DNA of 54,990 nt from Gemmatimonadota bacterium (GTDB lineage: Bacteria > Gemmatimonadota > Gemmatimonadetes > Gemmatimonadales > Gemmatimonadaceae): contig JAJPIS010000078.1 in the NCBI GenBank assembly GCA_021324635.1, positions 1 to 54,990 on the forward strand. The letters run 5' to 3'. Position numbers and translations under genes: made by a program. Shown here piece by piece: positions 4,253 through 41,924 of this stretch (positions are counted from its first letter, which is position 1; the number at the start of each line of letters is the position of its first letter). A model generated the notes under the pieces. That model ran no database searches and was not told the DNA's origin. It saw only the letters and a program-made list of their open reading frames with translations.

Positions 4253-5098
4253 CTAGCGCTCGAGGAGATCCTCGAACCGCATCCAGTGCTTGTAGAAGTA
4301 CAGGTCGACGTACCCGGTCGGGCCGCTGCGGTTCTTGAGCGCGAGTAGCTCGGTCGCGCCCTCGACGCTCAGGCCCCCCTGATACATCTCCTCGCGGTAC
4401 AGGGCGAGCACCACGTCCGCGTGCTGCTTGGGGGCGTGGAGGGCGCCGAAATCGTCGAGTGTCGGCCGCCGGTCCGGGCGACTGCGGTCGAGGTTCGGCA
4501 GATGGGCGAGGAGCAGCAGCGCCAGCTCCGACTGGAGGGCCGCGGCCTTGAGCGCGCGGACGGCCGCCGCCAGCTCCTCGTCCTGGGCCAGCCGCCCGGC
4601 GCCGAGTGACTGGAGGCCGTCGATGACCACCAGCCGCGCGCCGCCGCGGGCCGCGATCGACTCGCCGAGCTGCTCGACAGTCGCCGGAAGACGTTCAACC
4701 ATGGGCGAGACGTCGCGCAGTCGGAGCGCGGCGGCGCCCGCGCTCGCGCGCGTGCCCTCGTCCAGTGTGCCGCGCCGCAGGTCGTCGATCCGGGCCCGGC
4801 CCTCGAGGGCGAGCATCCGCTCCAGCACCCGCTCGACCGACATCTCCCCCGTGTAGTACGCGGCGGGTACGCCGCTCAGCATGGCCCGCATCGCGACGGC
4901 GAGGGCCAGGGCCGACTTGCCGCTGCCGACGTCGCCGCCCAGGACCGCCAGATCGCCCGTGCGGAAGCCACCGCCCAGCAGTTGGTCGATGCTCGGGAAG
5001 CCGGTCGAGATCGTGTCGTTGGTCGGCGCGCCGTCGGAGCGCGCATCGATCCGCCGGAGGAGCTGCGAGAGCGGGGAGATGTCGGTGGACCGCGGCAC
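4253..5098 (-). CDS. DnaB-type helicase C-terminal (RecA-fold) ATPase domain protein
   Basis: A 281-aa stand-alone protein that matches only the C-terminal motor of replicative helicase DnaB. Walker A is GGDVGSGKSALAL, Walker B LVVIDGLQSLG, and near the end come DVVLALYREEMY and LLALKNRSGPTGYVDLYFY, like the DnaB segment carrying the arginine finger, then RFEDL. The DnaB N-terminal primase-interacting domain is absent; only about 30 residues precede the fold. A full-length dnaB presumably exists elsewhere. RadA or KaiC-like alternatives are less likely because no zinc finger or Lon-like domain is seen. The start is a GTG. It follows the 128-aa gene by 30 bp, so the two are probably cotranscribed. 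Role unknown. Confidence 0.75.
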   Translation of the reverse strand: MPRSTDISPLSQLLRRIDARSDGAPTNDTISTGFPSIDQLLGGGFRTGDLAVLGGDVGSGKSALALAVAMRAMLSGVPAAYYTGEMSVERVLERMLALEGRARIDDLRRGTLDEGTRASAGAAALRLRDVSPMVERLPATVEQLGESIAARGGARLVVIDGLQSLGAGRLAQDEELAAAVRALKAAALQSELALLLLAHLPNLDRSRPDRRPTLDDFGALHAPKQHADVVLALYREEMYQGGLSVEGATELLALKNRSGPTGYVDLYFYKHWMRFEDLLER

Positions 5099-5128: not shown

Positions 5129-5515
5129 TCAGCGAGGGATGAGGGCCTCGACCTCGGACCGCGCCGGTCCGTCGAGGGTGCGCCCGACGACGTCGAGCAC
5201 GCCGCGGAGCGCCGACCGCAAGGTCGCAGGGTCGTCCTGGGCCGCCGCATCGATCACCCGCGCGAAGGCGGCCCGCGCCGGCGCGGGCAGTGTGCAGGCC
5301 GCCAGCCAGGCCCGGGCGCCGGCCGCACGCCGGGCGCGGACCTCGGCGCCGAGCGCCACCGGCGAGGCGGCGCCGGCGACCAGGTGCGCGCACACGAAGG
5401 CTGCGAGCGCGACCTCACGGTCGCCCCCCAACGGCCGCCGCCCCGCCAGCGTAGCGAGCGCGGGGAAGCGGAACACCGGCGCCTCGAGGGCGTACGGCAG
5501 ACGGCTGCCAAGCAC
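5129..5515 (-). CDS. Small alanine-rich hypothetical protein
   Basis: A 128-aa, strongly alanine/arginine-rich protein with no motif I recognise, no signal peptide and predicted all-helical character. The start is a GTG at 5515 with a TAGCTT box ending 7 nt upstream, the leaderless pattern seen elsewhere in the window, which supports it as a real gene. It precedes the DnaB-like ATPase gene by 30 bp on the same strand and is divergent from the PorX-like gene. Function cannot be inferred beyond a possible link with that ATPase. Confidence 0.6.
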   Translation of the reverse strand: MLGSRLPYALEAPVFRFPALATLAGRRPLGGDREVALAAFVCAHLVAGAASPVALGAEVRARRAAGARAWLAACTLPAPARAAFARVIDAAAQDDPATLRSALRGVLDVVGRTLDGPARSEVEALIPR

Positions 5516-5528: not shown

Positions 5529-5539
5529 GAGTGCAACAA

Positions 5540-5545
5540 TACATT
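5540..5545 (+). promoter_or_regulatory. Candidate -10 box (TACATT) of the PorX-like gene
   Basis: TACATT ends 9 nt before the ATG at 5555. The divergent intergenic space is only 39 bp, so both promoters must overlap. Confidence 0.4.
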
Positions 5546-5554
5546 CCGCACGAG

Positions 5555-7303
5555 ATGGCCCCGCTCGGCGCTTCGCCCCTCGTTCCCGCCACGTCCGCCA
5601 TCTCCGCCAGCCCCGGCATCTCCGCGATTTCCGCCGCCTCGCCCACTCCCGCCCCCCGGCCTACGCCCCCCCCGCAGCCCTCGGCTCCCACGCCAGGTCC
5701 GGCCCCGTCCGCCGCTCAGGGACCGCCCCGGAAGCCGGCACCCGCCCGCAAGGCGGTGCTCTGGGTGGACGACGAGGTGGAGCTGCTCGAGCCGCATCGC
5801 ATCTTCCTGCGCGAGAGCGGCTACGACGTGGAGATGGCGACCAACGCCGACGACGCCATCGAGCTCATCCGACAGCGGCCGTTCGACGTCGTGTTGCTGG
5901 ACGAGCAGATGCCGGGCAAGCGCGGTCTCGACGCCTATCGCGATCTGCGGGCGTTGGACCCCAACGTCCCGGTGGTGATGGTCACCAAGAGCGAGGAAGA
6001 CGCGACGCTGACCGAGGCGATCGGCGCCAACGTCCGCGACTACCTCACCAAGCCGATCAATCCCCGTCAGGTGCTGGCGGCCGTGCGGCGGATCCTCGAC
6101 GGGCCCCGCATCCGCCAGCAGGCGCTGGCCCGCCGGTTCGTCGAGCGCTTCCGCGCGATCGAGCTCGAGCGTGCCCGGCCGCTGGACTGGCGCGGCTGGG
6201 TCGAGCGCTTCGGGGAGCTCATGAAGTGGGACGTCGAGCTGGCGGCCGCGGGCGAGACCGGACTCTACGAGTCCCTCCGCGGGCTCTACGCCGACATGCA
6301 TCGCGAGTTCGCCGCCTTCATGGCCGCGGCCTATCCGAGCTGGCTTCAGCATCTCGAGGGCAATCGACCCCCGCTCTCGGTCGACGTCATCGGCGAGTTC
6401 CTGCTCCCCGTGCTCCAGCGCGACCGGGCGGCGATCTTCGTCGTCGTCGACTGCCTGCGGCTCGACCAGTGGATGGCGTTGGAGCCGCTGCTGGCCCCGC
6501 TGTTCGACGTCGAGGTGACCCACCACTTCGCCGTCCTGCCGACCGCCACGCCGTACTCGCGGAACGCCCTCTTCAGCGGCCTCTTCCCCGGCGAGATCGC
6601 CGCCCGGTTCCCGGACTGGTGGGGTCCCGGGGCACGCGAAGATGAGACCCTCAACGCGCACGAGCGGGAGTTGCTCGAGGCGCACCTGACGGAGCTCGAG
6701 CACCCGGTCCCCGTCCGGTACTTCAAGATCTCGACCGCCGCCGATTCCGATGAGCTGGAGCGGCGGCTCCATGCCGCGATCGCCCCCGATGGGGTGACGG
6801 CCTTCGTCTTCAACTTCGTCGACCTGCTCACCCACGGCCGGAGCGAGTCGGCGATCCTGTACGAGGTGGCGCGCGACGAGATCGCGCTCCGGCAGTTGAC
6901 CGTGCAGTGGTTTCAGCGGTCCGCGTTGCTCGGTGTCCTCAAGGAAGCCGCCCGCCGGCGGGTCACCGTGCTGCTCACGAGCGACCACGGCTCGATTCAC
7001 TGCCAGACACCGGCGACCGTGTACGCCAAGCGCGACGCGACCGCGAATCTGCGCTACAAGTTCGGCGAGGACGTGCGCGCCGAGCGGCCCGATCACGCGC
7101 TGCTCTTCCCCAGCGCCGACCAGTTGCGCCTCCCCCACCGGGGTCTGGGCTCGCACACGCTGCTCGCCACGGGCGACTCGTTCTTCGTGTATCCGACCAA
7201 GCTCCGCGAGTACCAGAGCCGATACCGCGGGTCGTTCCTGCACGGCGGGGTGACACCGGAAGAGGTGATCCTCCCGGTGGCGCTGCTCACGCCGCGCCGG
7301 TAG
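5555..7303 (+). CDS. PorX-like response regulator with PglZ (alkaline-phosphatase-fold) domain
   Basis: Two-domain signalling protein of 582 aa. Residues 1-65 are a Pro/Ala/Ser-rich tail. Residues 66-185 form a receiver domain with acidic pair VDDE, phosphoacceptor Asp116 (DVVLLDEQMPG), Thr in MVTKSEE and Lys in YLTKPINP. After a helical linker, residues about 290-580 form a PglZ domain with metal and catalytic residues Asp299 (VVDCLR), Thr332 (TATPYSRNALFSG), NFVDLLTH and Asp477-His478 (TSDHGS). This is the architecture of PorX, which in Bacteroidota regulates type IX secretion and has nucleotide phosphodiesterase activity. No sensor kinase and no type IX gene are nearby; the next genes are a lipid exporter and glycosyltransferases. 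A GTG at 5531 is an alternative start. Confidence 0.88.
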   Translation: MAPLGASPLVPATSAISASPGISAISAASPTPAPRPTPPPQPSAPTPGPAPSAAQGPPRKPAPARKAVLWVDDEVELLEPHRIFLRESGYDVEMATNADDAIELIRQRPFDVVLLDEQMPGKRGLDAYRDLRALDPNVPVVMVTKSEEDATLTEAIGANVRDYLTKPINPRQVLAAVRRILDGPRIRQQALARRFVERFRAIELERARPLDWRGWVERFGELMKWDVELAAAGETGLYESLRGLYADMHREFAAFMAAAYPSWLQHLEGNRPPLSVDVIGEFLLPVLQRDRAAIFVVVDCLRLDQWMALEPLLAPLFDVEVTHHFAVLPTATPYSRNALFSGLFPGEIAARFPDWWGPGAREDETLNAHERELLEAHLTELEHPVPVRYFKISTAADSDELERRLHAAIAPDGVTAFVFNFVDLLTHGRSESAILYEVARDEIALRQLTVQWFQRSALLGVLKEAARRRVTVLLTSDHGSIHCQTPATVYAKRDATANLRYKFGEDVRAERPDHALLFPSADQLRLPHRGLGSHTLLATGDSFFVYPTKLREYQSRYRGSFLHGGVTPEEVILPVALLTPRR

Positions 7304-7326: not shown

Positions 7327-9288
7327 ATGAATGCCTCGGCTGCCCGGGTCCCCGCGCCGCCGTCCGAGGCCGGGCCGACCCCGCCGGCGCGGTCCGGGGC
7401 GCGCCGCACGCCGGCCGGGATCGCCTACCGCCGGCTCCTCGGGTTCCTGCGGCCGCACCGGTGGCGGATGGGCGGCGCGATCGCGTCCAGCGTCGTCGCC
7501 GCGGCGCTCGATGCGTTCTCGATCGCGCTCCTGATTCCGTTCCTCAATGCGCTCTTCGACAAGCCGCCGTTCGCGGTCAACGGGACGGCGCTCACCCGGT
7601 TCGTCGCCTTCACGATCGGCTTCCTGCTCGATCCGCGCGACAAGATGGGGTCGCTCGAGACGGTCATCCTGATCGTCCTGGCGACCGTGTCCGTCAAGAA
7701 TCTCCTCGTCTGGTACGGGGGCCAGCTGGGGGCGCAGCTCCAGGAGTACGTGACGCGCGACATGCGGAACGTCGTCTACGCGCATCTCCAGCGTCTCCCG
7801 CTGCCGTACTTCACGCGGACCAAGGGCGGCCAGATCACGGCCCGGATCCTGGTCGACACCGACCAGACGAAATTGCTCGTCACGCAGCTGGTGACGTCCG
7901 GGATCCAGAACGGCTCGCAGATCGTCGTGTACATCGCGTCGATGTTCGCGGTCTCGTGGCGGCTGTCGCTCATCATGCTCACCGTCGCCCCGGCGATCAC
8001 CGGGACGCTCCAGCCCATCCTCCGCCGCCTCCGCAAGAACCACCGCCGGCTCCGCGACGACTACGGCGAGATCCTGAGCGTGCTCCAGGAGATCGTCTCC
8101 GGGATGCGGCTCGTGAAGTCCTTCCGGGCCGAGCCTTACGAGGAGCGGCGGTTCGTCGAAGCGAGCACGCAGTACTCGCGGCGACTCGTGCGGGTGACGA
8201 AGCTGGCCCTGCTGTCGCAGCCGATCACCGAGTTCCTGGGGACCCTGGTCATCGTCGGTCTCCTCTGGTACGGCGCGCGGGGCGTGCTCGTCGATCGGAC
8301 GCTGACCGGCGGCGAGCTGCTGGTCTTCCTCACGATCGCCATGAAGCTCCTCCAGCCGCTCAAGCAGGTGACGCAGCTCCCGACCACGGCCCAGGCCTCG
8401 CTCGCCGCCGCCGAGCGGATCTTCGAGATCCTGGACGAGCCCACCGAGACCGAGGCCGATCGGGGGACGCGCGACGTCGGCGCCGATTTCGACGCCGTCA
8501 GCTTCCAGCGCGTGACGTTCGCCTACGCGCCGGCGAGCGAGCCGGTGCTGTCCGACATCACGTTCACGGCGCGCAAGGGCGAGGTGGTGGCGCTCGTCGG
8601 GGCCAGCGGGGCGGGGAAGAGCACCCTCGTCGACCTCATCCCCCGGTTCATCGAGCCCACGAGCGGCCGCATTCTCCTCGGCGGAGCCGACACGCGCGAG
8701 ATCCGGCTCGCCGCCCTGCGCGCGCTGACCGGGATCGTGAGCCAGGACACGGTGCTCTTCAACGACAGCGTCCGCCGCAACATCGCCTACGGCGCCGAGG
8801 GGCGTTACACCGACGCGGAGGTCGAGGCCGCGGCCCGCGCCGCCAACGCCCACGCCTTCATCGCCGAGCTGCCGGACGGCTACGACACCATCCTGGGGGA
8901 GCGGGGGACGCGACTCTCCGGCGGGCAGCGGCAGCGCATCGCGATCGCCCGCGCCCTGTTGACCGACCCGCCGATCCTCATCCTCGATGAGGCGACGTCG
9001 GCGCTCGATACCGAGAGCGAGCGGCTCGTCCAGGAGGCGATCGACCGGCTGCTCGCCGGGCGCACGGTGTTCGTCATCGCGCACCGGCTCTCCACCGTGG
9101 CGCATGCCGACCAGATCCTGGTGCTCGATCGCGGGCGCATCGTGGAGCGCGGCACTCACACCGAGCTGCTGGCGCTCCGGGGGCTCTATCACCGGCTCCA
9201 CGCGCTCCAGTTCGGGGACGCGCCGATCGGTCCCGACGACGAGCCCCTGCTCGCGCGCCCGGCTCCGGTCGGTGGCGCGCTGGGCTAG
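7327..9288 (+). CDS. MsbA-like ABC exporter (fused permease and ATPase)
   Basis: A 653-aa half-transporter expected to flip lipid A or another lipid across the inner membrane as a homodimer. After a basic Pro/Ala-rich start of about 35 residues come six membrane segments. The nucleotide-binding domain has Walker [11 protein letters not shown]-loop VSQDTVLF, signature LSGGQRQR, Walker [13 protein letters not shown] and the switch His in IAHRLSTV. It follows the PorX-like gene by 23 bp and precedes two glycosyltransferases and a LpxL-type acyltransferase, a context that favours a lipid A or lipooligosaccharide substrate over drug export. A second, diverged exporter lies at 37967-39922. Confidence 0.85.
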
Positions 9289-9291
9289 CCG

Positions 9292-10389
9292 GTGCGCGTC
9301 CTGTTCTACTACTCCGCCCCGCAGTGGACGGGGAGCGCCCGGGCGTTCGCCGCCGCCGCCCGCGGGCTCGGAGACCGCGGCTATCAGGTGACGTTCGTCT
9401 GCCCCGGCAGCAGCGCCGTCGAGGTGCGCGCGGCCGCCGAGGGCTGCGATGTCATTCCGCTCGCACCCGGCGGCTCGCTACCCGTGCGGAGCTGGCGGCT
9501 CCAGCGGATCCTCACGGAGCGCTTCGTCGAGACGGTCTTCGTCCATACCGAGGCGGAGCAGCTCGCGGTCGCGATGGCGATGCGGCTCGCCGGCCGCGGG
9601 GGGGTCGTGCGGCGCGTGCCGGCCGGCGGGCGGTTCCATGCCGGACGGGGGACGCGCATGGCGTTGCGGTTGGCGAGCGGCGGGCTGATGTTCGCCTCGC
9701 GGCTCGATGAGGACGCGGTGTCGCCCCTCGCACGCGCGCGGCGGCCGGTCGTCGCGGAGCTGGGCGTCGCCCCCTCGCGCTACGACGAGCTGCGTCCCGT
9801 CCCGGCCGCGGCGCTCGGCGCGGCCTCGCCGGCAGCCCGCCTGATCGTCTGCGTGTATGACGGCGCTGAGCGCGTCCGAGCGGCGGGCGTGCTCCGCACC
9901 ATGGCCCTGCTCGCCCCGCGCCACCCCGAGCTCCACCTGGTGTTGCTCGGCCACGGGGCCGGTCACGAGGATCTGCGAATGCACGCCGCCGCGCTCGGCA
10001 TCGCCCGCCGCATCACGCACGTCGACGAGCGGGACGACGACCTGGCCGTGCTCCGCGCCGCGGACGTCGGGTGGGTGGCGGCGACGCTCGACACGGCGGC
10101 CTATGCGGCGCTCGACTTCATGGCGATGCGGATTCCCGTGCTCACCGACCGTGGCACGGTCGCCGAGCGCTATCTGGCGGCCGGGATCACGGGCGCGGTG
10201 CTGACGCCCGGGGACACCGCCGCGGCGGCCGCGACCGTCGCCGAACTGCTCGCCAACGATGCGCAGCGGACGGCGATGGGGAGCGCCGGCCGGGCGCGCG
10301 TCGCGCGCCAGTACGACGAGCGCGCGATGCTCGACGCCGTGCAACAGGCGGCGGACAGCGCGCGGGATCGAACGCTGTGGACCGGGTGA
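9292..10389 (+). CDS. Glycosyltransferase (GT-B fold, family 4-like)
   Basis: A 365-aa GT-B enzyme likely adding a sugar to an envelope glycolipid. It begins with a GTG 3 bp after the exporter stop (VRVLFYYSAPQWTGSARAF). The N-terminal half has Rossmann features (YQVTFVCPG). The C-terminal half resembles GT4: a strand near HLVLLGHGAGHEDLRMHAAALGI, then VGWVAATLDTAAYAALDFMAMRIPVLTDRGTVAERY, where the donor-binding E-x7-E motif is not clearly conserved. The sugar and acceptor cannot be read from sequence. It is one of two tandem glycosyltransferases between the exporter and the acyltransferase. Confidence 0.75.
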   Translation: MRVLFYYSAPQWTGSARAFAAAARGLGDRGYQVTFVCPGSSAVEVRAAAEGCDVIPLAPGGSLPVRSWRLQRILTERFVETVFVHTEAEQLAVAMAMRLAGRGGVVRRVPAGGRFHAGRGTRMALRLASGGLMFASRLDEDAVSPLARARRPVVAELGVAPSRYDELRPVPAAALGAASPAARLIVCVYDGAERVRAAGVLRTMALLAPRHPELHLVLLGHGAGHEDLRMHAAALGIARRITHVDERDDDLAVLRAADVGWVAATLDTAAYAALDFMAMRIPVLTDRGTVAERYLAAGITGAVLTPGDTAAAAATVAELLANDAQRTAMGSAGRARVARQYDERAMLDAVQQAADSARDRTLWTG

Positions 10390-10399
10390 CCGGGACGGC

Positions 10400-11722
10400 G
10401 TGCGCGCGCTCCGGCATCTCTTCATCACGCAGGACTATCCGCCGCTCGGCGGCGGCATGTCCCGCCGCCACGTCGAGCTGTGCCGGCGGCTCGCCGCGAC
10501 GCCCGGCGACCACGTGATGGTCTCCACGGTCGCTCCGGACGGCGCCCGACAGCGCGAGGCGGGTACCTTCGACACCGGCGAGCCGTACGACATCGTGCGG
10601 CAACCGTTCACCTTCCGCGGCGCCAAGACGATCGGCAACCAGGCGCGGTGGGCCCGGTGGCTGGCGCCCCGGACGGCGGTCGGGCGTCCCGACCACGTCG
10701 ACGTGATTCATTGCGGCAACATCCGGCCCGCCGGGTACCCGTCGTGGTGGGCGCATCGGGTGACCGGTGTCCCGTACCTCGTCTACGTCTACGGCGGCGA
10801 CCTCCTCCGCGAGCACCGGAAGATCGATCGGAGTCCACTCAAGCGCTGGACCGCGCGCCGGATCTTCGAGGACAGCGCCGGAGTCGTCGCCATCTCCGAC
10901 TGGAGCGGCGACGTCGCCCGCGATGTCATGGCGCAGGCGGGCGTGCGCCGCCCGCCGACGCTGCTGGTCAACCCGCTGGGCACCGATCCCGCCTTCTTCC
11001 ACCCGGGCCGCGACACGGGCGCGCTCCGCGCCCGGCTCGGGCTCGGCGATGCGCCACTCCTGCTGACCGTGGCTCGTCTCACGCCGCACAAGGGGATCGA
11101 TGTCGGGCTGGCGGCGCTCGCCGCGCTGCGCGAGGGCTGGCCGAGCCTGCGGTATCTCGTGATCGGGACGGGCGAGGATCTCCACCGTCTCGAGGCGCTC
11201 GCTGACGGGCTTGGCGTGCGGGATCGGGTGGTGTTCGCCGGGGCCCTGGCGGACGAGGCGATCGCCGAGGCCTATGCGACGGCGACCGTCTACGTCGGCC
11301 TCTCCCGGGTCGACGCCGGCATCAACGCCGAGGGATTCGGGATCGCCTTCGTCGAGGCCGGAGCGAGCGGCACGCCGAGCGTCGCCGGCGACTCCGGCGG
11401 CGTGCGGTCGGCCGTGCGCGACGGTGAGACGGGAGTCGTGGTCGACCCCGTGGACCCCGCCGCGGCGGCCGCGGCCATCCGGACGCTCCTCGACGACCCG
11501 GCCCGATGTGCTGCGCTCGGACGGGCGGCTCGCGATGCGGTCGAGCGGTACTACAACTGGGGCCGGGTGGCGCGGGAGGTGCGCGACTTCGCGGCGGACG
11601 CGGTGCGGGCGGCGGCCCGGCGCGCGGGCGGCCGGTCCGGGGCCGGGCGAGGTGCCGGGCGAGGCGCCGGGCGAGGTGCCGGACCGCGCGGCGCGGCGGG
11701 CGACGTCGGCGGAGTCGGGTGA
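10400..11722 (+). CDS. Glycosyltransferase family 4 protein
   Basis: A 440-aa retaining GT-B glycosyltransferase. Family features are the N-terminal ITQDYPPLGGGMSRRHVELC segment, YGGDLLREHR, ISDWSGDVARDV, TVARLTPHKGIDVGLAAL and the donor-site motif EGFGIAFVEAGASGTPSVAGDSGG. The GTG at 10400 is chosen because it begins the first beta strand and lies 10 bp after the preceding gene; the frame stays open upstream inside that gene. The last 30 residues are a Gly-Ala-Gly-Arg low-complexity tail made by 12-bp tandem repeats (about 11640-11690). The stop overlaps the next ATG by one base (TGATG). Confidence 0.85.
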   Translation: MRALRHLFITQDYPPLGGGMSRRHVELCRRLAATPGDHVMVSTVAPDGARQREAGTFDTGEPYDIVRQPFTFRGAKTIGNQARWARWLAPRTAVGRPDHVDVIHCGNIRPAGYPSWWAHRVTGVPYLVYVYGGDLLREHRKIDRSPLKRWTARRIFEDSAGVVAISDWSGDVARDVMAQAGVRRPPTLLVNPLGTDPAFFHPGRDTGALRARLGLGDAPLLLTVARLTPHKGIDVGLAALAALREGWPSLRYLVIGTGEDLHRLEALADGLGVRDRVVFAGALADEAIAEAYATATVYVGLSRVDAGINAEGFGIAFVEAGASGTPSVAGDSGGVRSAVRDGETGVVVDPVDPAAAAAAIRTLLDDPARCAALGRAARDAVERYYNWGRVAREVRDFAADAVRAAARRAGGRSGAGRGAGRGAGRGAGPRGAAGDVGGVG

Positions 11723-12672
11723 TGGCATCGGTCGGCGACGTCGTCGAGTACGCGGCGCTCCGGGTCGGGCTCGGCGCGCTCGGGCTCGTCCCCTGGCGCG
11801 CCGCCGGTTCGATCGCCGGTCGGGTGGCGCGCCTCGGATACCGGCCGCTCCGCATCCGACGTCACGTCGTCGAGTCGCAGATCGCGACCGCGTTCCCGGA
11901 GTGGGGTGCGCGCGAAGTGCGGCGCGTGGCGCGCGGCGCGTACGAGCATCTGGGGCGGACAGCGGTCGAAGCGGCGCTGCTGTCCACGCTCTCCCGCGAG
12001 CGGGTGCTCGACATGTTCGACGGCGAGGGCGACTGGGCGCGCATGGCGGACGCGCTCGCCGCGGGCCGCGGGGTCATCGTCGTCACCGGACATATCGGGA
12101 ACTGGGAGCTGGCGGGTGCCTACATCGCCGCGCGCGGGGTCGGGATCGAGGGCGTCGTCCGGCGGATGACGAATCCGTTCGTCGATCGCTATCTGACGGC
12201 GACGCGCGAGCGGGCGGGGCTCGGCGTCATCCCGGACGACCCGGTGCGGCGCATCCCGCGGGCGCTCCGGAGCGGCCACGTGGTCGCCCTGGTCGCCGAT
12301 CAGGGCGTCAAGGGGATGGCGTCGACGTATGTGCCGTTCTTTGGGCGGCTCGCCAAGACGCCGCGCGGGCCCGGAGTCTTCGCGCTTCGCCTCGGCGTGC
12401 CGCTCGTCGTCGGCACGGCGATCCGTCTGCCGAGCGGGAAGTACCGGGCGCTCGTCGAGCCGATCCTGGTGGAGGACACCGGCGACCGCGAGCGGGACGT
12501 CGACGCGGTGGTGCGTCGATACACATCGGTGCTCGAGCGCTGGGTCCGCGCCTATCCCGAGCAATACCTCTGGCACCATCGCCGCTGGAAGCGGCGCCCC
12601 GAGGAAGAGGCCGAGCTGGAGCGCCTGACCCAATCGTCGTCGACGTCCCCGCCGTCGCCGCCCCCCCCGTAG
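11722..12672 (+). CDS. LpxL/HtrB-type lysophospholipid/lipid A acyltransferase
   Basis: A 316-aa membrane-associated acyltransferase of the HtrB/MsbB family, expected to acylate lipid A or a related glycolipid from acyl-ACP. The catalytic H-x4-E motif is visible in VVTGHIGNWELAG, followed by FVDRYLTATRERAGLGVI, VALVADQGVKGMASTYVPFFG and the C-terminal PEQYLWHHRRWKRRP that closes most family members. An N-terminal hydrophobic segment (LGLGALGLVPWRAAGSIAG) anchors it. The last 12 residues are Ser/Pro-rich, and the TAG stop lies inside the GTAGGGGC start of the downstream repeat array, so the repeat may have replaced the native end. Confidence 0.85.
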   Translation: MASVGDVVEYAALRVGLGALGLVPWRAAGSIAGRVARLGYRPLRIRRHVVESQIATAFPEWGAREVRRVARGAYEHLGRTAVEAALLSTLSRERVLDMFDGEGDWARMADALAAGRGVIVVTGHIGNWELAGAYIAARGVGIEGVVRRMTNPFVDRYLTATRERAGLGVIPDDPVRRIPRALRSGHVVALVADQGVKGMASTYVPFFGRLAKTPRGPGVFALRLGVPLVVGTAIRLPSGKYRALVEPILVEDTGDRERDVDAVVRRYTSVLERWVRAYPEQYLWHHRRWKRRPEEEAELERLTQSSSTSPPSPPPP

Positions 12673-37122: not shown

Positions 37123-37995
37123 ATGACATGGCGGTCGCCGCGCGGCCGCACGACGCCGGTCGCAGTCCTCATCGCCGCGCTCGCCAGCTCACTCGCCTGC
37201 TCCCGCGCCGATTCCCAGCGCGCCGATTCCGCGCCCCCGCCGGCCGGCATCCGCGCTCGGGGCGCCGGGGCCGCGCGTGCGGCGCTCGTCCCGACCCTCG
37301 AGGGCCTGGGAACCGGCGAGACCTACCGGACGATCCGACTCGAGGCAACCGGCCGGATCACCGGGACCGTCGAATTCGATGGGCCGGCGCCGATCGACTC
37401 GGTCGTGCATCCGAGCGTCGACGCCGACGTCTGCGGCCAATCGCTCGTCGACATCAGCGTCGAGCACCGCGGGCCGCGGCTGGCGAACGCGGTCGTCTGG
37501 CTGGACGGCGTGACGGCGGGGAAGAGCCGCCCGCTCGTGCGCCGGTACGAGATCACCACCGAGGGCTGCCGGCTCATCCCTCGCGTGCAGGCAGCGCTCG
37601 CCGGCGGTACGCTCGATGTGCGGAACGCCGATGCGGCGCTCCACCGCACCGACTTCCTTCGGGCGTCGACCGACGTGCGCCTCGCCTCCGTGCCCGAGAC
37701 CGAGGCGGGGGCCGTCGTCCCCACGCGCGCCGTCCTCGCGGCTCCGGGGCTCGTCGAGGTCCGCTGCGCCCAGCATCCGTGGTCACGTGGCTGGATCTTC
37801 GTCTTCGGCCAGCCCTACTTCACGACCACTGACGTCAACGGCGGCTTCGCGATCGACTCCGTCCCGCCTGGCCGCTACCGGCTCACCGTCTGGCACGAGC
37901 GCTTCGGCGCGCGCAGCGACAGCGTGACCGTGTCCGCGGGCGGTGAGGCGCGCGTGGCGATCCGTCTCACACCGGCTCGGACGCCAGCCCTCTGA
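37123..37995 (+). CDS. Lipoprotein with carboxypeptidase-regulatory/cupredoxin-like domains
   Basis: A 290-aa exported protein with a basic start, a hydrophobic stretch and the lipobox LASSLAC (Cys26), so probably a lipoprotein. After a Pro/Ala linker comes a domain with ITGTVEFDGPAPID, SVDADVCGQSLVDIS and LANAVVWLDGV, as in proteins annotated carboxypeptidase-regulatory-like or methylamine-utilisation-like. It ends with VRCAQHPWSRGWIFVFGQPYFTTTDVNGGFAIDSVPPGRYRLTVWHE, which has His and Cys residues suggestive of a cupredoxin-like site. Function unknown. A GTG three codons upstream is possible. Its last 29 bp overlap the convergent ABC exporter gene. Confidence 0.7.
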   Translation: MTWRSPRGRTTPVAVLIAALASSLACSRADSQRADSAPPPAGIRARGAGAARAALVPTLEGLGTGETYRTIRLEATGRITGTVEFDGPAPIDSVVHPSVDADVCGQSLVDISVEHRGPRLANAVVWLDGVTAGKSRPLVRRYEITTEGCRLIPRVQAALAGGTLDVRNADAALHRTDFLRASTDVRLASVPETEAGAVVPTRAVLAAPGLVEVRCAQHPWSRGWIFVFGQPYFTTTDVNGGFAIDSVPPGRYRLTVWHERFGARSDSVTVSAGGEARVAIRLTPARTPAL

Positions 37996-39922
37996 ACTGT
38001 CCCCGGTAGAGCCGGGCGTACGTCCCCTCGCTCGCGAGGAGCGCCGCGTGCGTGCCCTCCTCGACGATGTGCCCGCGGTCGAGCACCAGCAGGCGGTCCG
38101 CGCGGAGCACGGTGCTCAACCGGTGGGCGATGATGAGCGTCGACCGCCCGCGGAGCAGCTCTTCCATCGCCTGCTCGACGAGCCGCTCGCTCTCGTTGTC
38201 GAGACTCGACGTCGCTTCATCGAGGACGACCACGGCCGGGTCCTTGAGGAAGACGCGGGCGATCGCGAGGCGCTGGCGCTGTCCCCCGGACAGCTTCACC
38301 CCGCGCTCGCCGACGCGGGTGCCGAACCCGTCGGGCAGCCGCTCGATGAACTCGAGGGCGTGCGCGGCCCGCGCCGCGGCCATGATCTCGTCGTCGGTGG
38401 CGTCGGCGCGGGGGTAGGCGATGTTGTCGCGCACCGTGCCGCTGAACAGCGCCGGCTCCTGCGGCACGATCCCGATCGACCCGCGGAGGTCGGCGAACGA
38501 CAGGTGCCGCACGTCATGGCCGTCGAGGGTGATCCGCCCGCTCGTCACGTCCCAGAAGCGTGGGAGGAGCGAGGCGATGGTCGTCTTGCCGGCGCCCGAC
38601 GGACCGACGAGCGCGACGACCTCGCCCGGCGCGATGGTGAGCGACACATCGCGGAGCACGTCGGGTAGCTCCGGCGCATACCGGAAGGTCACCCGCTCGA
38701 AGGCGACGGCGCCCCGGACCGGGCGGGCAAGCAGCTCCGGCGAGTCCGGCTCGGCGACCGTCGGCGATGTGCCCAGCAGCTCGAAGACACGCGAGGCCGC
38801 CCCGACCGCCTCCTGATAGCTGCCGAAGAGCGATGCGAGCGAGCCGATCGCGAGTGCCACGTACATGGCATAGAGCAGGAACTGCACGAAGCCGCCCGGC
38901 GTCAGCTCCTTCTGGAGCACGAGCTGCCCGCCCTGCCAGAGGATGACAACCACCCCGGCGAACGCGATGAAGCCGACCACGCCGAAGAAGAGGGCGCGGA
39001 GGAAGGCCCGGTGCACCGCGGCCGCCACCACCTCCCGCAGTTGATCCCGGAACCGCCGGGTCTCGCCCGCTTCCCGCACGAATCCCTGCACGGTGCGGAT
39101 CTGCGAGAACGCTTCGTCCGCCATCCCCATCGCCTCGGCGACCCGGTCCTGCACTCCCGTGCTCGCCCGCCGGAGCGACCGGCCGAACAGAAACGCCGCC
39201 GCGACGACGATCGGCGCGACCTCGAGCGTCGTGACCGCGAGCTGGCGGTGCGAGTACATCAGGAGCGCGACGCCGCCGATCACGAAGATGACCTGGCGCA
39301 CGAACTCCGACACGTACGTGTTGCCGACCGACTGGAGGATCGCCAGATCCGCCGACAACCGGCTCGTCAGCTCACCCGTCCGGCGCTCGGTGAAGAAGGC
39401 CGGGGACAGGCGAACGAGGTGCGCGAAGAGCTGCTCGCGGAGCTTCGCGATCACCCGCTCGGTGGTCGACGTGTTGATATAGACCTGGGCGAAGTTGAGC
39501 ACCCCCTGCACGGCGAACAGCGTCAGCATCCCCAACGCCAACTGGTTGAGGCGATGCCGGTCCTGCCGCTGGAATGCCGCGTCGAGCAGGTACTTCGCGA
39601 CGCCCGGGAAGATGAGCCCGACCGCGGCCGCCGCCAGCAGGAACACCGTCGCGAAGGCGAGGCGCCACCGGTACGGGCGGAGGAGCGGCAGCAGGTGGCC
39701 GAGGGGTCTGGGCGACGGGAGCCGCCGTGACCGGGCGCCCTGTGCCGGCACCGATGTGTCCGCGACCCGCGCGTCGCCGTTCGACGCTCCGACGCTCGCG
39801 CCCGCATGTGCGCCGCGATCGCCGTCCCCATCCGCGCCCTGTCCGACGCCCCCATCGCCAGCGGGTGCCGGCCGGCGCGTCCGCTCCGGCGGGCCGAGCG
39901 GTGCAGTGGGCGACGGGGTCAT
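37967..39922 (-). CDS. ABC exporter, fused permease and ATPase
   Basis: A 651-aa half-transporter with an N-terminal Pro/Gly/Ala-rich cytoplasmic tail of about 70 residues, six membrane segments and an ATPase domain: Walker A GPSGAGKTT, Q-loop VPQEPALFSG, signature LSGGQRQR, Walker B VVVLDEATSSLD and switch His in IAHRLSTV. The membrane part (LSPAFFTERRTGELTSRLSADLAILQ) matches lipid or multidrug exporters of MsbA/LmrA type. It differs clearly from the exporter at 7327-9288, so the two are not recent duplicates. It overlaps the convergent lipoprotein gene by 29 bp. GGAG sits next to the ATG, which is very close for a ribosome binding site. Confidence 0.86.
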   Translation of the reverse strand: MTPSPTAPLGPPERTRRPAPAGDGGVGQGADGDGDRGAHAGASVGASNGDARVADTSVPAQGARSRRLPSPRPLGHLLPLLRPYRWRLAFATVFLLAAAAVGLIFPGVAKYLLDAAFQRQDRHRLNQLALGMLTLFAVQGVLNFAQVYINTSTTERVIAKLREQLFAHLVRLSPAFFTERRTGELTSRLSADLAILQSVGNTYVSEFVRQVIFVIGGVALLMYSHRQLAVTTLEVAPIVVAAAFLFGRSLRRASTGVQDRVAEAMGMADEAFSQIRTVQGFVREAGETRRFRDQLREVVAAAVHRAFLRALFFGVVGFIAFAGVVVILWQGGQLVLQKELTPGGFVQFLLYAMYVALAIGSLASLFGSYQEAVGAASRVFELLGTSPTVAEPDSPELLARPVRGAVAFERVTFRYAPELPDVLRDVSLTIAPGEVVALVGPSGAGKTTIASLLPRFWDVTSGRITLDGHDVRHLSFADLRGSIGIVPQEPALFSGTVRDNIAYPRADATDDEIMAAARAAHALEFIERLPDGFGTRVGERGVKLSGGQRQRLAIARVFLKDPAVVVLDEATSSLDNESERLVEQAMEELLRGRSTLIIAHRLSTVLRADRLLVLDRGHIVEEGTHAALLASEGTYARLYRGQFRGLASEPV

Positions 39923-39948
39923 CTCCGCCCCGGTCGCCGAAGGCGGGG

Positions 39949-40964
<1,016 letters not shown>

Positions 40965-40968
<4 letters not shown>

Positions 40969-41924
40969 GCGACCGCCTCGGTCGGGACGGCGATGGACGG
41001 CCGCGAGCGGGCGGCTGCCCCGACGGCGCCGCGATAGGCGAGCGCCGCGAGCGCGAAGACGACGACCCACAGGAATGTTCCCACCGCCTGGTGCAGCGAC
41101 TGGAGGATGGGGGGCAGCCCGAGCTCGACCAGGGCCGCGGCCACACCGACCTGGAGCAGCACGACCCCGACGGCGAGCACGGCTGCACGCACGACCGCGG
41201 GCGGCTCCCGGCGGCGGACGACGCCGATGGCGACGCCCAGCAGGTGGAGGGTCAGGAGCATGGCGAGCACGCGGTGTACGATCTGCACGTCGAGCGCCGC
41301 GCCGCCGGTCAGGATGCCGTTCCGGCACCACGGGAACCCGCGGCACGACGGGGCAGCCCCCGGCACGTTCGCGGTGAGGGCACCGAGGACGACCGTCACG
41401 AACGCGAGCCCCGCGGCCGCGGCGGCCGCGCGCGCGACGCGCAGTGACGCCGCGCCCGTCCGCACCGTCTCCGCTCCGAGGGCCCCGGCCCGCTGCGCGG
41501 CGACGACCAGCACCGCCAGGGTCGCCATCGCGATCGTGTAGTGGACGGCAATGAGGTAGGGATTGGAGAGCGACAGCATCACGACCAGCATCCCGACGAC
41601 GGCTGCCGTGACCACGAGCGCGAGCGCGAGGATGGCGGGGCGGAGGACGCCGCCGGCACCGCCGACCCCCGGCTCGCGCCGGCGAGCCATGGCGAGCAGG
41701 ACCAGGGCGCACATCGTCGCCAGGAGGGTGGCCGCGAGATACCGGTGGGTGACTTCCACGGCCACCGTGTAGTTGCGCACCACGGGAACGAACGCGCCAT
41801 TGCAGTCCGGCCAGTGCTCCCCACACCCCATGCCCGAGCCCGAGATGCGGACGATCGCCCCGAAGACACTGTGCACGTACGCGAGCCCGAGCCCGAGCAG
41901 CGCCACGCGTCGCAGCGCGGTCAT
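40965..41924 (-). CDS. ctaA: Heme A synthase (COX15/CtaA family)
   Basis: Oxidises the methyl group at C8 of heme O to the formyl group of heme A. The 319-aa membrane protein has eight segments and the family heme ligands and loops: GAIVRISGSGMGCGEHWPDCNGAFVP, VEVTHRYLAA, VHYTIAMATL, the paired cysteines in APSCRGFPWCRNG, VQIVHRVLAMLLTLH and LQSLHQAVGTFLW. Both the CtaA-type Cys pair and all four His are present. It overlaps the COX2-like gene and ctaB by 4 bp each, so heme A supply is coupled to a small oxidase-like membrane protein. Confidence 0.93.

What the first reader, a model, noticed from the sequence alone, without database searches (positions are those of the whole stretch)
5555..7303. 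PorX-like response regulator/PglZ enzyme in front of a lipid-export and glycosylation block
All receiver and phosphatase-fold residues are intact, so both phosphorylation and a phosphohydrolase or phosphodiesterase activity are plausible. PorX is known from type IX secretion in Bacteroidota, yet no por or gld gene is here. The downstream MsbA-like exporter, glycosyltransferases and acyltransferase suggest a different output, such as control of glycolipid or surface-sugar supply. The N-terminal 65-residue Pro-rich tail is unusual.
Basis: partly seen in the sequence, partly recalled or inferred. Interest (0 to 1): 0.55.

Follow-up and report, generated by a model that had tools for sequence, protein, structure and literature searches.

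The report
Secretion-system regulator kept without its translocon
This gene encodes an intact enzyme-bearing signalling protein, PorX, known as the switch of a Bacteroidota secretion machine; this bacterium and many of its relatives appear to have lost that machine's outer-membrane channel yet keep the protein, usually next to a lipid-export gene, so PorX probably has a second job that has not been worked out.

Summary
In detail: 5555-7303(+) encodes a 582-residue receiver/three-helix/PglZ protein with every phosphorylation, zinc-binding and catalytic residue of PorX. It passes NCBI's PorX model (518 bits, cut-off 300), and its predicted fold matches the PorX-pGpG crystal structure (TM 0.96). 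It is inherited vertically and near-universal in Gemmatimonadota (260 of 295 genomes).

SprA, the type IX translocon, is in 206 of 295 Gemmatimonadota genomes but absent from this genome and its two sampled congeners, as are PorV and the CTD signal. 58 of 89 SprA-less genomes keep PorX. PorX here is under strong purifying selection (dN/dS about 0.07), and its active site is intact in 12 of 12 SprA-less genomes checked. Conversely, 9 of 9 tested Fibrobacterota with a broken PorX active site still have SprA.

PorX sits directly before an MsbA-like exporter in 61 of 70 phylum loci, also where the upstream gene order differs. Most likely it is a two-component phosphodiesterase with an envelope role separable from type IX secretion. 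The lipid/LPS output is inference. The "unusual" N-tail is a species-level expansion.

The parts
5555..7303 (+). porX-family response regulator / PglZ (alkaline-phosphatase-fold) phosphodiesterase, 582 aa
   Evidence: NF052313 518 bits, cut-off 300; PDB PorX, E 1e-106; 7pvk TM 0.96
5555..5749 (+). 65-residue Pro/Ala-rich N-terminal tail, predicted disordered; about 48 residues longer than in the two closest relatives
5756..6088 (+). receiver (REC) domain, phospho-acceptor D116
6101..6349 (+). three-helix linker bundle region (residues 183-265)
   Evidence: secondary structure; domain plan from PMC11320123 section 20
6428..7294 (+). PglZ / alkaline-phosphatase-superfamily domain (residues 292-580) with D299, T332, D423, H427, D477, H478, H563 and ligand residues R336, K391, N420
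7327..9288 (+). MsbA-like ABC exporter, 653 aa, 23 bp after porX
   Evidence: (TIGR02203 542 bits, cut-off 602)
9292..10389 (+). GT4-type glycosyltransferase
10439..11722 (+). second GT4-type glycosyltransferase (start codon not settled)
11722..12672 (+). lipid A biosynthesis (LpxL-type) acyltransferase
   Evidence: the ORF was scanned from 11506

Best explanation
The protein is a true PorX-family response regulator whose output domain is a zinc-dependent phosphodiesterase. A histidine kinase encoded elsewhere would phosphorylate D116, the protein would dimerise as in PorX crystals, and the PglZ domain would hydrolyse a nucleotide-type phosphodiester (pGpG is the ligand seen in a homologue). 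In this genus it works without a type IX translocon: SprA, PorV and CTD cargo signals are not detected, yet the protein is under strong purifying selection with a complete active site. The most likely job is control of envelope (lipid A/LPS-type) assembly or export, because it lies just upstream of an MsbA-like exporter across the class and beside an LPS heptosyltransferase in Glassbacteria. Shown by computation: family, fold, intact sites, vertical descent, retention without SprA, conserved pairing. Inferred: phosphorylation, enzyme activity, substrate, kinase, and the envelope output. Rough confidence by layer: PorX family 0.98; works without a type IX translocon in this lineage 0.8; envelope/LPS output 0.4.
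For: Family: NF052313 518 bits over a cut-off of 300; full-length PDB PorX matches; the model matches 17 PorX chains first, TM 0.93-0.96 on the target length, the next hit being BREX PglZ at 0.31. Descent: the PorX tree follows taxonomy. No translocon: SprA absent in G000, G059, G138 and G001, G002; a Gemmatimonadota-built SprA profile finds 6 of 6 controls (364-2792 bits) and 0 of 74 SprA-negative genomes. PorV family absent in 3 of 3 of the genus; CTD signal absent in the same. Retention: SprA+PorX+ 202, SprA+PorX- 4, SprA-PorX+ 58, SprA-PorX- 31 of 295. At least 6 SprA changes are forced on the PorX tree. Selection: dN/dS 0.066 and 0.070 against two close relatives. Active site: seven of seven residues in 13 of 13 SprA-less loci, 12 distinct genomes. 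Neighbourhood: exporter right after porX in 61 of 70 loci; 5 of the other 9 are contig ends. It holds in families f4-f9, where the yebC-ruv flank is not found.
Against: PorX is not blind to type IX secretion: its loss is concentrated in SprA-less genomes (31 of 35 PorX-negatives; Fisher P 2e-14, not corrected for descent), so part of its role does track SprA. The exporter stays in place where porX is gone, so it does not need PorX. Two class-level loci with room (L111, L122), plus L047, have no exporter next door. Other type IX parts (PorK, PorN, PorL, PorU, PorY, SigP) were not searched, and the GldM search was uninformative. There are no expression or biochemical data.
Confidence: 0.6

Rival explanations
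1. An ordinary type IX regulator: the genome has a diverged or unassembled type IX system that the searches missed.
For: 202 of 206 SprA-bearing Gemmatimonadota have PorX; the genome is a 127-contig draft, 96.8% complete; in class Gemmatimonadetes even SprA-bearing genomes mostly lack the standard CTD (9 of 27 tested have any match), so the local system is divergent and harder to see.
Against: Five records of the genus or very close to it (G000, G059, G138, G001, G002; G001 and G002 may be the same genomes as G138 and G059) all lack SprA. The phylum-specific profile scores 364-2792 bits in six controls and nothing here. PorV is missing as well.
Confidence: 0.15
2. A left-over: PorX lost its purpose with the translocon and has not yet been deleted.
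For: 31 SprA-less genomes lack it, with flanks intact in five inspected family-f1 genomes; so loss does follow.
Against: dN/dS 0.066-0.070 and 90% identity within the SprA-less group, higher than the adjacent exporter at 76-77%; all active-site residues kept; retention in about 25 genera of the sample (genus labels read). In f7 genus g63 all 16 sampled genomes keep it.
Confidence: 0.08
3. A type IX-independent nucleotide-signalling enzyme with a general role (for example oligonucleotide turnover), its place before the exporter being only inherited gene order.
For: The homologue binds pGpG (7pvk, rank 1), and phosphodiesterase activity is reported for PorXFJ (PMC11320123 section 22). The exporter persists without porX. 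In Bacteroidota, Zixibacteria and Fibrobacterota the neighbours are tsaE and serS, not lipid genes.
Against: The pairing survives where the upstream flank is different; lipid/sugar genes follow porX also in Glassbacteria (heptosyltransferase) and in L122 (GT2).
Confidence: 0.3
4. A BREX/Pgl defence component.
For: PglZ domain; NF033449 BREX_PglZ_3 at 81 bits.
Against: The BREX model cut-off is 250 bits; the PorX model passes; no BrxC, PglX or BrxB among the genes annotated beside it.
Confidence: 0.01

Closest known systems
PorX of Porphyromonas gingivalis and Flavobacterium johnsoniae (PDB 7pv7/7pva/7pvk, 8p6f, 8ted)
   Same: Full-length REC - helical bundle - PglZ architecture, about 33% identity in the structural alignment, all phosphorylation, zinc and catalytic residues and the auxiliary-site residues R275, K329, N357, same fold.
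   Different: No SprA, PorV or CTD signal found in the genome; lies directly before an MsbA-like exporter instead of beside tsaE; long disordered N-tail.
PglZ of BREX systems
   Same: Same phosphatase-fold domain (9zn5, TM 0.44 on the query).
   Different: The window protein scores far below the BREX cut-offs and has a receiver domain and no BREX genes beside it.
MsbA lipid A flippase (neighbour)
   Same: ABC exporter matching TIGR02203 almost full length, 542 bits, with an LpxL-type acyltransferase gene further along.
   Different: Below the equivalog cut-off of 602 bits, so called MsbA-like only.

Membership tests
PorX protein family (NCBIfam NF052313) | score over curated cut-off across the whole model | tested here: met
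   518.2 bits, cut-off 300, residues 67-581 on model 2-513 of 513
PorX protein family (NCBIfam NF052313) | receiver domain with phospho-acceptor aspartate, acidic pair, Thr and Lys | tested here: met
   D72, D73, D116, T144, K166
PorX protein family (NCBIfam NF052313) | PglZ/APS domain with seven zinc/catalytic residues | tested here: met
   7 of 7
PorX protein family (NCBIfam NF052313) | fold of solved PorX | tested here: met
   7pvk TM 0.96 on target, rmsd 1.9 over 518 columns
PorX protein family (NCBIfam NF052313) | zinc-dependent phosphodiesterase activity; dimerisation | not testable with these tools
   needs protein; reported for PorXFJ in PMC11320123
PorX as regulator of a type IX secretion system | genome carries the SprA/Sov translocon | tested here: not met
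   absent in G000 and congeners
PorX as regulator of a type IX secretion system | genome carries PorV and CTD-bearing cargo | tested here: not met
   PorV_fam none; TIGR04183 none (weak test, as SprA-bearing class members mostly lack it too)
PorX as regulator of a type IX secretion system | PorL/PorM (GldL/GldM) motor to bind | tested here: inconclusive
   GldM_1st 0 of 44, but also silent in the two Bacteroidota genomes with strong SprA; PorL not searched
PorX as regulator of a type IX secretion system | PorY kinase and SigP sigma factor partners | not tested
   no specific search was run in the genome
MsbA (TIGR02203), the neighbour | score over equivalog cut-off | tested here: not met
   542.1 bits, cut-off 602
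BREX PglZ (NF033449, NF033446) | score over cut-off | tested here: not met
   81.3 (cut-off 250) and 53 (cut-off 200) bits

The most novel reading that the evidence does not exclude
PorX is two devices in one. Its receiver domain is what type IX secretion needs, and its PglZ phosphodiesterase serves a separate, perhaps older, envelope-control pathway. Nature has dissociated them both ways: SprA-bearing Fibrobacterota keep the receiver and break the enzyme, while SprA-less Gemmatimonadota keep the whole enzyme beside a lipid exporter. In the latter PorX would be a phosphorylation-gated nucleotide (or phospholipid-type) hydrolase that sets lipid A/LPS export.
Probability: 0.3. Interest if true: 0.75.

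Novelty: new variant of a known kind. Interest (0 to 1): 0.6.

Why it matters
What PorX's enzyme does is an open question: PorX is described as strictly conserved in type IX-using bacteria, and its own structural authors raised the possibility of functions not directly related to type IX secretion (PMC11320123, abstract and a discussion passage). Here are genomes where nature has removed the translocon and kept the enzyme under strong selection, and others where it broke the enzyme and kept the translocon. That makes the two roles separable by experiment, and gives a neighbour (an MsbA-like exporter) to test first.

Tried and rejected
BREX/defence origin: rejected on model scores. Horizontal import: rejected, the PorX tree follows taxonomy. 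GldM_1st as a motor marker: 0 of 44, silent also in Bacteroidota G024 and G025, so not used as evidence of absence. Pfam SprA_N on the own genome alone rang in no control; replaced by TIGR04189 with working positives and then by a phylum-specific profile. TIGR04183 does not separate SprA-bearing from SprA-less class Gemmatimonadetes well, so CTD absence is weak evidence alone. The first selection script read porX out of frame (porX rows void; its msbA rows stand); repeated in frame. The first adjacency count (57 of 98 loci) lost pairs to over-extended ORF starts; redone by alignment position. Rows left out of the count: L042, L043, L045-L052, L055-L070, L072, L074 (28 of the 78 loci L002-L079) and L080 (a receiver-only match). 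Of these L045, L047 and L048 bear Gemmatimonadota titles: L048 pairs, L045 and L047 do not; the rest are titled Glassbacteria, Zixibacteria, Fibrobacterota and their classes, Bacteroidota, or plain bacterium. Three pairs of loci look like the same contig by length (L048/L116, L053/L109, L045/L127), so counts of loci exceed counts of genomes. In one search L005 was labelled SprA+ on two fragment matches below the cut-off. SprA status for the phylum sample takes every genome not listed among the matches as negative (only 20 of 89 negatives are printed). The four SprA+PorX- genomes (G274, G084, G149, G325) were not inspected. The lag-in-deletion idea and the hidden-system idea are kept as rivals.

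Full report
OBSERVATION. The window lies in a 4.09 Mb, 127-contig genome, 96.8% complete. The ORF at 5555-7303(+) is real: 582 residues, receiver domain 68-178, PglZ domain 293-486. NCBIfam's PorX equivalog model matches end to end at 518 bits over a cut-off of 300. Solved PorX proteins align from residue 67 to the C-terminus at E about 1e-106. An AlphaFold2 model (mean pLDDT 85.8) matches 17 PorX chains first, led by PorX in complex with pGpG (TM 0.96 on the target). Every receiver residue and all seven zinc/catalytic residues listed for PorXFJ (PMC11320123, sections 20 and 22 read) are present, as are the auxiliary-site residues R275, K329 and N357 (here R336, K391, N420).

THE TAIL. The ATG at 5555 is in the same place as the start codons of the two closest relatives L002 and L003, with similar bases upstream; they have 21 residues before the WVDD motif, here 69. 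The tail is low-complexity and modelled as disorder. It is a species-level expansion, not a family feature.

DISTRIBUTION. One scan of genome contigs gave 79 loci: Gemmatimonadota, Glassbacteria, Zixibacteria, Fibrobacterota, Bacteroidota, and one distant receiver-only match. In 295 Gemmatimonadota genomes asked for at 90% completeness or more, 260 exceed the PorX cut-off; the other 35 show only receiver-level matches. A tree of 54 PorX follows taxonomy. PorX here is therefore inherited, not imported.

TYPE IX TRANSLOCON. Gemmatimonadota do encode true SprA: three sampled proteins score 512-682 bits on TIGR04189 (cut-off 200; 3 of 3), and one matches solved SprA 6h3i at E 7.5e-24. That type IX systems may exist in this phylum is in print as a possibility (PMC11285876, passage), and SprA is called FCB-specific in PMC12611786 (passage). 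Of 36 PorX-bearing genomes across the FCB group, 31 have SprA at E up to 0.001 (28 over the cut-off); the five without are this genome, its two nearest relatives, G011 and G020. In the 295-genome sample SprA is in 206. Cross-table: SprA+PorX+ 202, SprA+PorX- 4, SprA-PorX+ 58, SprA-PorX- 31 (Fisher P 2e-14, not corrected for descent). This genome and both congeners in the sample are SprA-PorX+. A profile built from five Gemmatimonadota SprA found 6 of 6 controls at 364-2792 bits and none of 74 SprA-negative genomes (of the 89 negatives of the sample, all 58 with PorX and 12 of the 31 without were given, plus G001, G002, G011 and G020). PorV is likewise missing in 3 of 3 of the genus (the family is in 250 of 295 at E up to 0.001, 168 over the cut-off), and so is the CTD signal.

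WHAT THE PATTERN SAYS. Two things hold together. PorX loss goes with SprA loss (31 of 35 losses), so PorX has something to do with SprA. Yet 58 of 89 SprA-less genomes keep PorX, in about 25 genera against 14 that lost it (genus labels read by me). Within genera that have both SprA-bearing and SprA-less members, the SprA-less members keep PorX in g7, g12, g60, g61 and g78, and lack it in g8 and g71. Nine SprA changes are needed on the 54-protein tree, at least six forced by well-supported branches. In the SprA-less group of this window porX has dN/dS 0.066 and 0.070 against two close relatives and is more conserved (90%) than the adjacent exporter (76-77%). The protein is doing something there.

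ACTIVE SITE. Of 95 PorX aligned, 81 keep all seven residues; all 14 that do not are Fibrobacterota, with 2 to 5 of seven left and all five receiver residues kept in each (blocks printed). All nine of these whose genomes were tested have SprA over the cut-off (G027-G035). By contrast 13 of 13 SprA-less loci (12 distinct genomes) have all seven. Catalysis and the translocon have come apart in both directions.

NEIGHBOURHOOD. porX (stop 7303) is followed after 23 bp by an MsbA-like exporter (7327-9288), two GT4 glycosyltransferases and an LpxL-type acyltransferase. Across 70 Gemmatimonadota loci the exporter follows directly, same strand, in 61 (60 within about 100 bp by alignment, L119 at 427); of the nine others five are contig ends, two are class members with room (L111, L122) and two are Glassbacteria (L045, L047 and L048 were left out, of which only L048 pairs). 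In families f1-f3 the upstream yebC-ruvCAB flank is shared too, but in f4-f9 it is not found while the pair remains, so the pair is not just frozen order. In Glassbacteria porX is followed by LPS heptosyltransferase II, in L122 by a GT2. Elsewhere in the FCB group the neighbour is tsaE-like (one cluster of 20 loci, two members confirmed by Pfam), with a histidine kinase directly upstream in 14 (one cluster, one member confirmed). In 17 inspected porX-less genomes the exporter is still there. In five of family f1 the dnaB-like ATPase gene (and orf128 where found) stands directly upstream of it, porX alone missing. So the exporter does not depend on PorX, and those five absences are deletions rather than assembly gaps.

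MECHANISM. Most likely: a kinase phosphorylates D116; the dimer forms; the zinc phosphodiesterase acts on a nucleotide-type phosphodiester and thereby tunes envelope assembly. The enzyme step rests on homologues (PMC11320123 section 22; 7pvk); the kinase, the substrate and the envelope output are inferred. In P. gingivalis type IX cargo is anchored to A-LPS (PMC8545088, abstract start in a search listing), which offers a bridge: a regulator that once matched lipid supply to secretion could keep the lipid half. This is speculation.

LITERATURE. PorX is described as strictly conserved in type IX-using bacteria (PMC11320123 abstract) and as co-occurring with the apparatus (PMC10951265, passage). 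A discussion passage of PMC11320123 raises functions not directly related to type IX secretion. I found no paper on PorX in Gemmatimonadota, on PorX without SprA, or on porX beside msbA in searches; the library holds open-licence papers only, and the NAR 2022 PorX paper was not held.

LIMITS. Draft genomes; SprA negatives not printed are inferred from the tally; no species tree; PorL, PorK, PorN, PorU, PorY and SigP not searched; GldM uninformative; no wet data.

Noticed in passing
L058-L070 and L072, PorX loci of Fibrobacterota: Fourteen Fibrobacterota PorX have broken PglZ active sites (2 to 5 of 7 residues left) with intact receiver domains; nine of nine tested genomes carry SprA. A natural enzyme-dead PorX series.
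   Followed up: partly
L058:2169-3479 and equivalents in 14 Zixibacteria/Fibrobacterota loci: A histidine kinase gene lies directly upstream of porX (serS - kinase - porX - tsaE), a candidate cognate kinase linked to porX, whereas in P. gingivalis PorY and PorX carry distant locus numbers (PGN_2001, PGN_1019; abstract).
   Followed up: partly
G044, G052, G054, G050 and others: Class Gemmatimonadetes genomes with clear SprA mostly lack the standard type IX CTD (9 of 27 tested have 1-5 matches), unlike Glassbacteria (24-33). What SprA exports there is unexplained.
   Followed up: no
window 4253-5098 (-): Stand-alone DnaB C-terminal (RecA-like) ATPase of 281 aa, conserved divergently upstream of porX in many relatives; function unclear.
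   Followed up: no
window 5129-5515 (-): Small conserved ORF of 128 aa between the ATPase and porX, 33-60% identical in many relatives, only a sub-threshold TilS-like match.
   Followed up: no
window 5535-5554: The 20 bases upstream of the porX ATG are similar in two close relatives (a TACATT-like hexamer close to the start), as might fit a leaderless transcript.
   Followed up: no
G039, G161, G106, G090, G301 (loci L148-L152): Five porX-less genomes with the dnaB-like ATPase directly before the exporter and both in place: clean absence of porX alone.
   Followed up: yes
window 37967-41826 (-): A second ABC exporter (37967-39922) next to a long UbiA-type prenyltransferase ORF.
   Followed up: no
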